Assembly: GCA_945787655.1 (NCBI GenBank)
Contig: CALZIJ010000007.1
Location: 1-47,379, forward strand
Source: Nitrospiria bacterium
Lineage (GTDB): Bacteria; Nitrospirota; Nitrospiria; SBBL01; JAADHI01
DNA: 47,379 nucleotides
Direction of reading: 5' to 3'
Of the stretch, positions 28,298 to 42,324 are shown one piece after another (the stretch's first letter is position 1; each line of letters starts with the position of its first letter). The notes beneath the pieces were generated by a model. The model had not been told where the DNA came from. It saw only the letters and a program-made list of their open reading frames with translations, and ran no database searches. The position numbers and the translations under genes were made by a program.

Positions 28298-28389
28298 GGA
28301 GAGATGGCCGAGCTCGGTTGAAGGCGCCTGACTCGAAATCAGGTGTGGGGGCAACTCCACCGGGGGTTCGAATCCCTCTCTCTCCGCCA
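28298..28389 (+). tRNA. tRNA-Ser(CGA)
   Basis: A class II tRNA of 92 nt with encoded CCA. The acceptor stem GGAGAGA pairs with TCTCTCC, followed by discriminator G. The anticodon loop CTCGAAA gives CGA (reads UCG), and a long variable arm (GTGGGGGCAACTCCAC) identifies serine. The T loop is GTTCGAATC. Confidence 0.97.
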
Positions 28390-28428
28390 GGTGCGGTAAA
28401 GGGAATGATCGCTTGTTAACAAAGTATT

Positions 28429-28521
28429 GGAGAGGTGTCCGAGCGGCTGAAGGAGCACGATTGGAAATCGTGTAGGCGGTTTGTAGCTGCCTCGGGGGTT
28501 CAAATCCCCCTCTCTCCGCCA
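28429..28521 (+). tRNA. tRNA-Ser(GGA)
   Basis: A class II tRNA of 93 nt with encoded CCA. The acceptor stem GGAGAGG pairs with TCTCTCC through one G-T wobble. The anticodon loop TTGGAAA gives GGA (reads UCC and UCU). The long variable arm is serine-type and differs from that of the CGA gene 39 bp upstream. A T6 run follows three bases after the CCA. Confidence 0.97.
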
Positions 28522-28550
28522 AACTTTTTTGTATTCCGGTTTTATGTATT

Positions 28551-28695
28551 GTTTTATGATCTGTTTATTGGAGAGTCCGGGCCCTGTGCAACAGGATCTT
28601 ATAAACCCCGTCAGGTCCGGAAGGAAGCAGCGGTAAGTAGGCGCTCCTGTGTGCCGCAGGTATACCTGGGCTCTCCACCAAGCAGATCATAAAAC
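28551..28695 (+). repeat. 15-bp complementary arms flanking the SRP RNA gene
   Basis: GTTTTATGATCTGTT (28551-28565) can pair along its entire length with AGCAGATCATAAAAC (28681-28695); the only non-Watson-Crick pair is one G-U. The arms sit 4 nt outside either end of the SRP RNA stem and would extend it by 15 bp. No T-run follows, so this is a processing stem rather than a typical terminator. Confidence 0.8.
28570..28676 (+). ncRNA. ffs: Signal recognition particle RNA (4.5S, small bacterial type)
   Basis: About 107 nt with the diagnostic apical sequence GTCAGGTCCGGAAGGAAGCAGCGGTAA, whose GGAA tetraloop and symmetric loop bind Ffh. The ends pair (GGAGAG with CTCTCC), and the upper stem is capped as in 4.5S RNA. 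No Alu domain is present, as in most Gram-negative bacteria. It lies between tRNA-Ser and dnaX, the same order as in Bacillus and many other bacteria. Confidence 0.97.
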
Positions 28696-38155: not shown

Positions 38156-38908
38156 TTAAACAGAGATTTTTTCCATCTCTTCATCCGAAATATCAAAATT
38201 GGCATAAATATTCTGGATGTCATCATGTTCCTCAAGTATATCCATCAAGCGAATCATTTGCTCCGCATGTTTTCCTTGAAGCGCAACGGTGGTTTGCGGC
38301 AAAAAAGTCACTTCTGCATAGTTGGGTTTATAGCCCGCTTTTAAAATGGCTTCATGCACCGACTCAAACTCATTGACCTCTGTAATGACATCAAAAGATT
38401 TCGGATCATCCGTTCGGAGATCTTCCGCACCGGATTCCAGGACCAGGGTCATCAGCTCTTCTTCATCGACCCCTTCCTTGGGAATCAGGATCATGCCCTT
38501 GCGGTCAAACATCCATGCTACCGCACCAGCTTCCGCCATATTACCGCCATATTTTCCAAGAAGATGACGAACTTCTGCAACGGTCCGGTTCTTATTATCC
38601 GTCAAAATATCCAGCAGCAAGGCCACGCCGCCCGGCCCATAGCCTTCATACGTGGTTTCTTCATAATTCACGCCGGGCAGTTCCCCCGTGCCTTTTTGAA
38701 TGGCTCGCTTTATATTGTCCGCTGGCATGTTGGATTCCTTGGCCTTCGAAATGACCATGCGAAGCCGTGGATTGCCGTCGGGATCACCCCCGCCAATTTT
38801 TGCTGCAACGGTAATCTCCCTGATAATCTTGGTGAAGGCCTTGCCCCGCTTGGCGTCTGCGGCTGCTTTTTTATGTTTTGTGGTTGCCCACTTTGAATGA
38901 CCTGACAT
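38156..38908 (-). CDS. yebC: YebC/PmpR family protein
   Basis: A 250-residue protein of the YebC family, first known as transcriptional regulators and more recently linked with relief of ribosome stalling at proline runs. The sequence opens with the family signature [23 protein letters not shown] and contains [25 protein letters not shown]. All three domains of the family appear present at the usual length. It is the first gene of a yebC-ruvC-ruvA operon and has a sigma-70 promoter upstream. Confidence 0.95.
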
Positions 38909-38959
38909 GGGAACTCCATCCTCATGATATATTGAAAAAACTTGCTTAAAAGACTGAAT

Positions 38960-38989
38960 TTATTAGCACAAATTCAGAAGAAGTGTCAA
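38960..38989 (-). promoter_or_regulatory. Sigma-70 promoter of yebC-ruvC-ruvA
   Basis: Minus-strand TTGACA (38984-38989), 18-nt spacer, TAATAA (38960-38965). GAATTT/AAATTC (38956-38975) makes an inverted repeat over the -10 that might be an operator. No LexA box is apparent, so SOS control of the ruv genes at this promoter is not supported. Confidence 0.6.
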
Positions 38990-39023
38990 TTTGTGTTTGT
39001 GTTGAGGAGAATGGATTTATGGC

Positions 39024-39759
39024 TTAACGACGACGCGGGGGAGGCGCTGTGGACGGGAAATCAGTCGATATTCCGCTCGACATCGAATCAAAACCCGCCC
39101 CTCCCCATCGGTCCCAGTTAATAGGGGATAACTGAAAATCATCAGAATCATGCAATGGAATGCCAGGACGCGACCGGGCGACTGAGCCGGTTCCGGATGA
39201 ACAACCGCCCCTAGTGCCGTTATCACTAAAAAAATGGTCTTCCAAATCATCCGATGCATCACCAAAATCGCTGCATCGGCTAAAATTAAGCAGGGCATTT
39301 GTCGCAGCATTCCGAATGGTCACCACTTCAAGATCCCCCCAATAGGTGATTTCTCCTCCCCCAGAAGTCGCAACTGTGTGAGAAAGATCCCCTGGGCCCA
39401 ATAAACAGCTCTTCATCATCTTCGGCACGTTCCAGATCGTCGGCATGTACTCCGTCAAAACTGGTGACCCAGACCCCAATATCTTGCCGAATATTGACCT
39501 TCCCTTGAAAAAAATCCGGACCCTGCATCACGTCTTCAACGATCAGACCGGGTACTGTTTCAGAATAGTTTTCCCAGGGCGCAGGCGCCTCTGAAGCGAG
39601 ATGGGTCACAGAGGCCGCCGAGAGTATTCTGGAAATATTGCCTCCATCTCCGCCACCGCCTCCTCCGCCAAACTGAGTATAAACAGGCGTTTCAGAGAGG
39701 GAGAGGAAAAAGAAAGGGAAAATGAATGCACCTTTAATACATGTAATCATCCTGAACAT
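39024..39759 (-). pseudogene. Exported glycine-rich protein of unknown function, frameshifted
   Basis: Two minus-strand frames make one protein of about 245 residues if a single base is removed. The first (39759 to ~39390) has a good start 8 nt after GGAGGA, a signal peptide (CIKGAFIFPFFFLSLSETPVYT), a run of seven glycines (QFGGGGGGGDGG) and the segment VWVTSFDGVHADDLERAEDDEELF. The second continues with DLSHTVATSGGGEITYWGDLEVVTIRN and ends APPPRRR. The break lies at the G4 run (39389-39392 on the plus strand, as C4). It may be a pseudogene, a sequencing error or a phase-variable gene. I recognise no family. It is divergent from a lipoprotein gene that is broken likewise. Confidence 0.6.
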
Positions 39760-39996
39760 TTTTCATGTCCTCCGGCTTCTTACACATGCAATACGGGCTC
39801 TTCTATAAATTTTAAACTGCTTGATCCAAGGTAATCATTTTCAAGTTTAACGCGAATAAAAAAACATATAAGTAAATTCGTTATTTTTAGAGATCATATT
39901 GCATACAATCGCTTATGTTGTTGGTTGTTTTTATTTTATTGTTCGTTCAAAGAGTTCTTAGAAAATGCACGTGATATTCACAAGGGCTTTTTAGTC

Positions 39997-40970
39997 ATGA
40001 ATCAAACTACCTTCAAAATATTGATTTCCCTACTTTTTCCTGTATTCCTATCGGCTTGTTCGGGAGGAATATTACCCGCATCGTCTCCCGAAGCAAATAT
40101 CACTCTGAATTCTGACATTCCTTCAGGAGATCCGCGTTGCCTTAACGGGGGAATTCAGACTGACACGGGAGTGGACCTGAACCAAAACGGTCAGCTCGAC
40201 CTTGACGAAATCAAAAACACGGCAATCTCCTGTTTTAAAAAAGTTTCCCTTGTTTCGGATGAGCCACCCTCTTTATGGTCTCTCCAACCGGCGCAGGACA
40301 TAAGAAATTGAATTTATCCTTAACCGGGCAAGGGGATGTTTTGCGCTTTGAGATTTCTCCGGACAGCACCCGCATTGCGTACCTCGCCGATGCAGAAACG
40401 GACGAAACATTCGAGCTTTATTCGATCCGTTTAGAGGGAATGGAGCAAACAAAATTAAGCCAGACCCTGGTCGCAAGTGGAGATGTCCATAACATCCCGA
40501 ATGAACCCGCAAGTTTCATCTGGTCTGCGGATAGCCAGTTTATCGCCTATCTGGCGACACAGGAAAAGGCCGACCAGGTTGAATTGTTTACGACATCCGT
40601 ATTGGACCTTTCCAATCAAAAACTAAACATCGCAATGAATACCAATGGCGACGTCACCGATTTTTCCTGGTCTCCTGATAATACCCGGATTGCCTATTTA
40701 GCCGATCACAACATCGATGGCATTTTTGAACTTTTTTCGGTTCGGAAAGATGGAAGCGATCAACAAAAAGTCAATAAGAACCCACTGCCCGCCCAGTCCT
40801 ATATTTCAGGCTTTACCTGGTCTCCAGACAGCATGCGCATCGCCTATTTAGGGGACCAGAATACCTTTGACGTCGATGAACTGTTTACAAGTTTTCCTGA
40901 TGGCACAGGCAACACAACCGTGAGTGATACGCTGATTAACGGCGGTCATGTTGTCGACTTTTCATGGTAA
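39997..40970 (+). pseudogene. Lipoprotein with DUF7151-like and TolB-like propeller regions, frameshifted
   Basis: Two plus-strand frames join into a lipoprotein of about 325 residues if one base is added in a C3 run at 40267-40269. The start is ATG 39997, with AAGGG 10 nt upstream. A signal peptide ends in the lipobox LSAC (SLLFPVFLSACSGG). A short domain CLNGGIQTDTGVDLNQNGQLDLDEIK follows, with the EF-hand-like loop D-L-N-Q-N-G-Q-L-D-L-D-E (the DUF7151 pattern). The second frame has at least four TolB/PD40 propeller repeats (FEISPDSTRIAYLAD, FSWSPDNTRIAYLAD, FTWSPDSMRIAYLGD). Its end lacks further repeats, so the propeller is incomplete. Role unknown. Confidence 0.65.
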
Positions 40971-41004
40971 ACTCACAAACCCACTCACGACATACCCACC
41001 GCAA

Positions 41005-42324
41005 CTAACGCCGCGACCGTTCCTTTAACTTAATCCGAATCGGTACGCCCAGAAACCCAAAGGCGCGGCGCAGCTGATTTTGAATATATCGAAGGTAATT
41101 TTCTGGCACCCCTTTGGGCGCATTGGTGAAGATCACAAAATTCGGAGGGGCGGTTCCTGTTTGGGTAATATAATAAAGATGAACGGGTTTTCCCCTGTAA
41201 GGGGATGGCGGATTCATCCCGAGGATTTTTTCAAAAAACCGGTTGAGGTCTCCAGTCGTTACCCGGGTATGATACCCCTCGAAAACCTTGTCGATTTTAC
41301 GAAAAAGGCGTGACACTCCCTTGCCTTCCATGGCCGAGATATACATGGTTTGTAAATCGGATACAAAAGGAAACCGGCGCAATAATTGTTGTTCTATTTC
41401 TTTTTCTCCCCCTTCTTTTTTTTTGACAAGATCCGATTTATTGACCAACAAAATCAAACCCCGTCCCGCTTCCAGCACCATGCCTGCCAGTTTGGTATCC
41501 TGTTCTGTAATCCCTTCATTGCCATCGACCAGCAATAACACAACATTCGCACGCTTAATCGCGCTTTGAGCACGGGAGACGCTGTACTGCTCGACCCCCC
41601 ACACCACCTTTCCGCGCCTTCGAATGCCTGCGGTATCAATAAAAAGATAATCTTTGCCTGCATGGGTCACCAAAACATCAATGGTATCGCGAGTCGTCCC
41701 CGCTCTTTCACTCGTCAGGATGCGCTCCTCTTTTAGAACCGCATTGATTAATGTGGATTTCCCCACATTAGGCCGTCCCAACAATACCACCGTTGGGCCT
41801 TCTTTCGGAGCTTCGTGTTCCGCAGGACAAAAGTGTGGATAAAGCACATCCAACATATCGGAAAGGCCGGTATTATGTTCCGACGATATTGGATACAATT
41901 CCGCACCGAGCGTATAAAACTCCTCAAGCCGTGCCGCCCCCCTGCCTTCGGTTTTATTAATAATGTGAAAAACCGGTTTCTCGGATTTTCGGAGCAGATT
42001 TTGGACGGCCTCGTCCACAGGCGTCACGCCCTCCAGCGCATCCAGGACAAAAAGAATGACATCAGCGTCGGCAATGGCTTTTTCAGATTGTTTCTGTACC
42101 GAGGCGCTAAAGAAGGCATCCTCCTCACCCAGCATGCCGCCCGTATCCACGAGAATATATTCACGGTCCCGGTAATGACATAAGGCTTCATTCCGATCCC
42201 GTGTAATCCCCGGCTCATCCTGAACGATGGCCTGTCTTCGTCCAACCAGCTTGTTAAACAGCGTTGATTTACCCACATTCGGGCGCCCGATAATCGCAAA
42301 AACGGGCCTTTTACCTACCCCCAA
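41005..42324 (-). CDS. der: Ribosome biogenesis GTPase Der (EngA)
   Basis: A 439-residue protein with two GTPase domains in tandem and a C-terminal KH-like domain (about residues 355-430; FFEKILGMNPPSPYRGKPVHLYYITQ). Domain 1 has GRPNVGKSTLFNKL and DTGGM; its G4 motif reads NKTE in place of NKxD. Domain 2 has GRPNVGKSTLINAVL, DTAGIRRRGKV and NKSD. It acts in assembly of the 50S subunit. It is the last gene of the minus-strand cluster that includes cbbQ and cbbO, and its start overlaps the 144-residue gene by 10 bp. Confidence 0.96.
   Translation of the reverse strand: MGVGKRPVFAIIGRPNVGKSTLFNKLVGRRQAIVQDEPGITRDRNEALCHYRDREYILVDTGGMLGEEDAFFSASVQKQSEKAIADADVILFVLDALEGVTPVDEAVQNLLRKSEKPVFHIINKTEGRGAARLEEFYTLGAELYPISSEHNTGLSDMLDVLYPHFCPAEHEAPKEGPTVVLLGRPNVGKSTLINAVLKEERILTSERAGTTRDTIDVLVTHAGKDYLFIDTAGIRRRGKVVWGVEQYSVSRAQSAIKRANVVLLLVDGNEGITEQDTKLAGMVLEAGRGLILLVNKSDLVKKKEGGEKEIEQQLLRRFPFVSDLQTMYISAMEGKGVSRLFRKIDKVFEGYHTRVTTGDLNRFFEKILGMNPPSPYRGKPVHLYYITQTGTAPPNFVIFTNAPKGVPENYLRYIQNQLRRAFGFLGVPIRIKLKERSRR

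What the first reader, a model, noticed from the sequence alone, without database searches (positions are those of the whole stretch)
39024..40970. Adjacent divergent exported-protein genes each broken by one base at a C/G run
Both genes have good starts and signal peptides and read as single proteins if one base is removed (gene at 39024-39759) or added (gene at 39997-40970). The breaks lie in short C/G runs. No such break is seen in about 40 other genes, so random sequencing error at two neighbouring genes is less likely than decay, or on/off switching of surface proteins.
Basis: partly seen in the sequence, partly recalled or inferred. Interest (0 to 1): 0.5.

Follow-up and report, generated by a model that had tools for sequence, protein, structure and literature searches.

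The report
Two neighbouring exported-protein genes in decay
Two neighbouring genes for exported proteins in an environmental Nitrospirota bacterium are broken mainly by internal deletions that an intact relative lacks, which is ordinary gene decay and not an on/off switch.

Summary
The frame breaks are present in the assembled sequence, but their description needs correcting. The syntenic relative G003 (same genus; yebC and der on either side) holds both genes intact (337 and 631 aa). Against it, gene 1 (39759-39024, -) has lost 306 nt in frame near 39504, and has a 2-nt gap beside, not inside, the C/G runs near 39400. Gene 2 (39997-40970, +) has lost a net 922 nt at 40258-40263; that loss is itself the frame change, so no one-base event is needed. 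There is no tandem repeat and no long C/G run at the breaks, so phase variation is not supported. The genome looks cleanly assembled: 43 ABC_tran matches, 38 near full length, none with an internal stop. Two open paralogues of gene 1 lie elsewhere in the genome, and G001 carries another decayed family copy. Gene 1's 5' part changed 4 of 8 family-invariant residues, its 3' part 1 of 28. Best reading: recent stepwise pseudogenisation. No reads were available, so an artefact, above all in gene 1's 2-nt gap, is not excluded. Low interest.

The parts
39328..39759 (-). Gene 1, 5' frame: ATG, signal-peptide-like start (by eye), Gly-rich linker, then sequence matching the family up to about 39403
39496..39510 (-). 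Gene 1 internal deletion junction: 306 nt (102 codons) present in both relatives is missing here; short imperfect similarity (AAGGTC / AAAGTA) at the two ends in G003; a run of seven T on the coding strand lies beside it
39389..39405 (-). Gene 1 frame change: aligns as a 2-nt gap against both relatives, beside C/G runs of 3-4
39024..39479 (-). Gene 1, 3' frame: conserved C-terminal part (in use from about 39400 down), 83% identical to the two orthologues
39997..40311 (+). Gene 2, 5' frame: lipoprotein-like start (by eye) and one DUF7151 domain; homology ends at about 40260
40256..40268 (+). Gene 2 deletion junction: a net 922 nt present in the G003 orthologue is missing; this is also the frame change
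40275..40970 (+). Gene 2, 3' frame: PD40/TolB-like beta-propeller repeats (homology begins at about 40263)
39760..39996 (.). Divergent intergenic region, 237 nt; the sigma-70 consensus scan of 38900-41050 found no site

Best explanation
Both genes are recent pseudogenes in this one lineage. Gene 1 belongs to an exported-protein family seen, in what I searched, only in this Nitrospirota order. It first lost 102 codons in frame by an internal deletion, and the shortened product tolerated changes in its N-terminal part. Later a 2-nt loss broke the frame ahead of the still well-kept C-terminal part. Gene 2, a lipoprotein-like protein with DUF7151 and TolB-like propeller repeats, lost about 922 nt in one internal deletion, which itself shifted the frame. 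Gene 1's loss is probably tolerable because two open paralogues remain in the genome; no such reason is known for gene 2. Shown: the deletions relative to G003, the frame switches, the open paralogues and orthologues, and the localised loss of invariant residues. Inferred: the order of events, illegitimate recombination or replication slippage at short similar sequences, and redundancy as the reason.
For: Syntenic intact pair in G003:C71 between the same neighbours, and intact gene 1 in G001:C23. Net losses of 306 nt and 922 nt. Window gene 1 groups with these two orthologues (support 1.0) and has the longest branch of the three, 0.35 against 0.15 and 0.15. In gene 1's 5' part after the Gly-rich linker, 4 of 8 columns invariant in 15 other members are changed, against at most 2 of 10 when each of the 15 is left out in turn; 0 of 7 in the middle piece; 1 of 28 in the 3' part, against at most 3 of 31. 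Open paralogues at G000:C57 and G000:C8. A second decayed family copy in G001 (L084), also with an internal loss and frame changes. Own-genome control: 43 ABC_tran matches, 38 near full length, none with an internal stop; the 5 partial matches were not followed up.
Against: No reads and no second genome of the species were available. Apart from gene 1's 5' part the remnants still look constrained: dN/dS is 0.08, 0.09 and 0.18 in the three window-orthologue comparisons where dS could be computed; in the others dS is saturated. Any non-functional time is therefore short. Gene 2 has only one complete orthologue for comparison, so a shorter ancestral repeat array cannot be fully separated from loss of repeats. 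The similarity at the deletion ends is short and imperfect.
Confidence: 0.8

Rival explanations
1. Assembly or consensus artefact: the genome is a draft of 168 contigs and the true genes are intact.
For: Draft of 168 contigs; the remnants are well conserved; gene 2 is repetitive in the relative; the 2-nt gap in gene 1 is small.
Against: The two large losses have only a few nt of similarity at their ends, much less than an assembler needs to collapse repeats (inference). None of 43 ABC_tran matches in this genome has an internal stop, 38 other window genes are open, and invariant residues are substituted in gene 1's 5' part.
Confidence: 0.12
2. Phase variation: slippage at short runs turns the two surface proteins on and off.
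For: Both genes look exported by eye, and the breaks are near C/G runs.
Against: No tandem repeat at minimum score 30; C/G runs at the breaks are 3-4 nt; large deletions in both genes are not reversible by slippage (inference); gene 2's frame change is the deletion itself.
Confidence: 0.02
3. The pieces are separate working genes: the short DUF7151 lipoprotein, and the C-terminal part of gene 1 or the propeller, are translated from internal starts or by programmed frameshifting.
For: The 3' part of gene 1 keeps its invariant residues and an ordinary rate.
Against: By eye the 3' frames lack an export signal and an evident ribosome-binding site; the relatives make one protein (gene 1 in G003 and G001, gene 2 in G003); constraint before the breaks would explain the conservation.
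Confidence: 0.05

Closest known systems
Bacterial pseudogenes formed by internal deletions between short similar sequences (general knowledge, recalled)
   Same: Large internal deletions with short similarity at the ends, frame loss, intact orthologues, and for gene 1 intact paralogues
   Different: Nothing essential; two adjacent divergent genes happen to be hit
Phase-variable (contingency) surface-protein genes (recalled)
   Same: Exported proteins with a frame break
   Different: No hypervariable tract; large deletions that slippage cannot undo
PD40 / TolB-like propeller proteins with DUF7151 (Pfam PF07676, PF23657)
   Same: The gene 2 pieces match both domains; the intact relative has two DUF7151 stretches and the repeats
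   Different: The window copy is interrupted and lacks one DUF7151 and part of the repeats present in G003

Membership tests
Pseudogene | Intact orthologue at the same locus in a relative | tested here: met
   G003:C71 holds both genes open between yebC and der
Pseudogene | Disabling lesion (frame change or truncation) relative to it | tested here: met
   306 nt and 2 nt in gene 1; net 922 nt in gene 2; frame switch in codon usage
Pseudogene | Relaxed constraint after the lesion | tested here: inconclusive
   Gene 1 5' part: 4 of 8 invariant columns changed; middle 0 of 7; 3' part 1 of 28. Low dN/dS with high or saturated dS. Gene 2 has a single complete orthologue
Pseudogene | Lesion confirmed by reads or in several isolates | not testable with these tools
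   No reads; no second genome of the species held
Phase-variable gene | Hypermutable repeat tract at the break | tested here: not met
   No tandem repeat; C/G runs of 3-4 at the breaks
Phase-variable gene | Mixed lengths in a population | not testable with these tools
   No reads
PD40/TolB-like propeller protein (gene 2) | PD40 repeats above the Pfam cut-off | tested here: met
   3' piece, PF07676 50 bits against a cut-off of 20.9
TolB of the Tol-Pal system (gene 2) | NCBIfam TIGR02800 equivalog score | tested here: not met
   The intact relative scores 67.3 bits against a cut-off of 343.15

The most novel reading that the evidence does not exclude
Gene 1 is the decayed member of an undescribed exported-protein family of the Manganitrophus-type Nitrospirota order that evolves by birth and death, and the divergent gene 1/gene 2 pair, which also stands head to head in G001 at another place, is a functional unit that was lost together in this lineage.
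Probability: 0.3. Interest if true: 0.3.

Novelty: new member of a known kind. Interest (0 to 1): 0.13.

Why it matters
It is ordinary gene decay. The small lasting value is a lineage-restricted exported-protein family (matches in 10 of 18 genomes of the order) for which three members found no Pfam or NCBIfam model, in a group that includes the manganese oxidiser Ca. Manganitrophus (titles; listing). Two decayed copies show turnover. It also shows why a frame break read from sequence alone as 'one base' should be compared with an intact orthologue.

Tried and rejected
Structure prediction of gene 1's intact orthologue with ten family members gave a poor model (mean pLDDT 45.7, pTM 0.34). It hints at many beta strands but was not used, and no fold search was run. 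dN/dS was tried, but dS is high or saturated (1.4 to beyond computing) even for the control genes yebC, der, ruvC and ruvA of window against G003, so I relied on invariant-column counts. That count used 15 of the 17 members found: one cut by a contig end (L028) and one with a long altered C-terminal tail (L049) were left out beforehand.

The search for the yebC-der interval in 11 genomes found the two genes beside each other only in the window's own genome and G003. In G013, a single contig, they lie about 290 kb apart; in the other eight they lie on different contigs. Gain or loss at this locus in the wider family could therefore not be polarised. The G001 copy of gene 2 runs off its contig, and its propeller was not found elsewhere in G001, so G001 gives no second comparison for gene 2's deletion.

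Flags against 'intact' that I checked: marks one TGA inside the G001 match and one TGA inside the G003 match. By coordinates both matches run past the natural stop codon shown. The window's 3' piece of gene 1 has a weak HIF-1 match (13.1 bits, cut-off 27), disregarded. Short two-copy repeats in the region do not coincide with the junctions and were not pursued.

Considered and rejected: phase variation; programmed frameshifting; one-base errors in C/G runs. The paper search for Manganitrophus, secreted protein or paralog (any one term) listed nothing relevant in the 15 rows shown, and the pseudogene search was not used.

Full report
What is there. The window is a whole 47,379-base contig (C7) of a 3.04-Mb genome in 168 contigs, 98.3% complete. 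Two divergent genes lie between yebC (38156-38908) and der (41005-42324); the names yebC, der, ruvA and ruvC are my recall from the proteins. Gene 1 reads from ATG at 39759 (minus strand) to 39328 in one frame, and 39479-39024 in another. Gene 2 reads 39997-40311, and then 40275-40970 in another frame. A codon-usage score built from 38 window genes changes frame between about 39300 and 39420 and at about 40260, though it is weak in gene 2's 5' part and negative at gene 1's extreme 5' end. The breaks are there in the assembled sequence.

Relatives. In G003, same genus, the same interval holds both genes as single frames: gene 1 at 337 aa and gene 2 at 631 aa. In G001, gene 1 is open at 340 aa, and a head-to-head gene 2 start runs off a 3,036-base contig. 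The record titles name Nitrospirota MAGs OFTM211 and OFTM336, whose contigs have the same lengths as G003:C71 (18,419) and G001:C23 (3,036). A listing ties the label OFTM to a paper whose abstract concerns the Oslofjord subsea tunnel. The wider family includes Ca. Manganitrophus and Manganitrophaceae records. The window genome itself is not named.

What differs. Against G003 and G001, gene 1 lacks 306 nt (102 codons, in frame) at a junction near 39504. It also lacks 2 nt beside the C/G runs near 39400; the exact place of so small a gap is the aligner's. Against G003, gene 2 jumps from its first DUF7151 into the later propeller repeats. Between matched landmarks the distance is 26 nt in the window and 948 nt in G003, a net loss of 922 nt, which is not a multiple of three. 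The protein alignment resumes at 40263 and continues to the end (56% identity over 236 columns, one gap). The frame change in gene 2 is therefore the deletion itself. Both junctions lie at short, imperfectly similar sequences, as in slippage or illegitimate recombination (inference).

Error or decay? No reads were available. Three things argue against error. First, in the same genome none of 43 ABC_tran matches has an internal stop; 38 are near full length, and the 5 partial ones were not followed up. 38 other window genes covering 88% of the window are open (my selection). Second, large losses with a few nt of similarity at their ends are not what an assembler's collapse of long repeats gives (inference). 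Third, gene 1's 5' part after the Gly-rich linker has substituted 4 of 8 columns that are invariant in 15 other family members. When each of those 15 was left out in turn, none had more than 2 of 10. The middle piece changed 0 of 7, and the 3' part 1 of 28, against at most 3 of 31 in leave-one-out. The 15 are those used of 17 found. Window gene 1 also has the longest branch of its orthologue group, 0.35 against 0.15 and 0.15 (its row was merged from the pieces).

Against long decay. The remnants are still conserved. dN/dS is 0.09 and 0.08 for gene 1's two parts in the one orthologue comparison each where dS could be computed, and 0.18 for gene 2's 5' part. It could not be computed for gene 2's 3' part or for the other window-orthologue comparisons. 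Controls window against G003 gave 0.08 (yebC), 0.05 (der), 0.06 (ruvA) and no value (ruvC); G003 against G001 gave 0.12 and 0.15 for the same parts of gene 1. Three-point arithmetic on pN gives a window branch of about 0.15 for gene 1's 5' part (signal peptide included), against about 0.06 for G003. For the 3' part the window branch is about 0.07, against about 0.06 for G003. The likeliest order is an older in-frame deletion with relaxed N-terminal constraint, then a recent frame loss.

Redundancy and turnover. The own genome has two open paralogues of gene 1, on C57 (359 aa) and C8 (370 aa). The family has matches in 10 of 18 genomes of the order. In the 58-genome search with gene 1's 3' piece it matched 9, all of the 18 of this order, and none of the 40 outside it. 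A further copy in G001 (L084) is broken too: one frame up to family position 205, another from 258, another near the end. Gene 2 is different: only distant propeller matches were found elsewhere in the own genome, so redundancy does not explain its loss.

Switching. There is no tandem repeat at score 30 or more. The C/G runs at the breaks are 3-4 nt, and 20% of the window lies within 3 nt of a C/G run of at least 3. Large deletions cannot be reversed by slippage. Phase variation is not supported.

Function. Three members of gene 1's family have no Pfam or NCBIfam match at E up to 0.1. The family has a signal-peptide-like start (by eye), a Gly-rich linker in most members and two invariant cysteines. 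Gene 2 is a lipoprotein-like DUF7151 + PD40 propeller protein, but its relative is not TolB by the NCBIfam cut-off. The structure model of gene 1's orthologue was too poor to use.

Verdict. Ordinary, recent pseudogenisation of two adjacent exported-protein genes.

Noticed in passing
L084:2965-3542: Decayed additional copy of the gene 1 family in G001, 76-96% identical in three pieces to that genome's C65 copy, with an internal loss and frame changes
   Followed up: partly
L037:3-212: The G001 gene 2 homologue is cut by the end of a 3,036-base contig, and its propeller part was not found elsewhere in that genome
   Followed up: no
L005:3613-5041: Two further proteins with signal-peptide-like starts (216 and 242 aa), without Pfam match, lie beside the C8 paralogue of gene 1 and share loosely similar Gln/Phe-rich motifs by eye
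   Followed up: no
G004:C14:8519-9810: The der homologue in G004 matches in two separate pieces with query residues 279-325 missing between them, perhaps a frame break or assembly fault in that genome
   Followed up: no
window 28298-28674: Two serine tRNA genes and the small SRP RNA lie together in a stretch without a protein gene on my list
   Followed up: no
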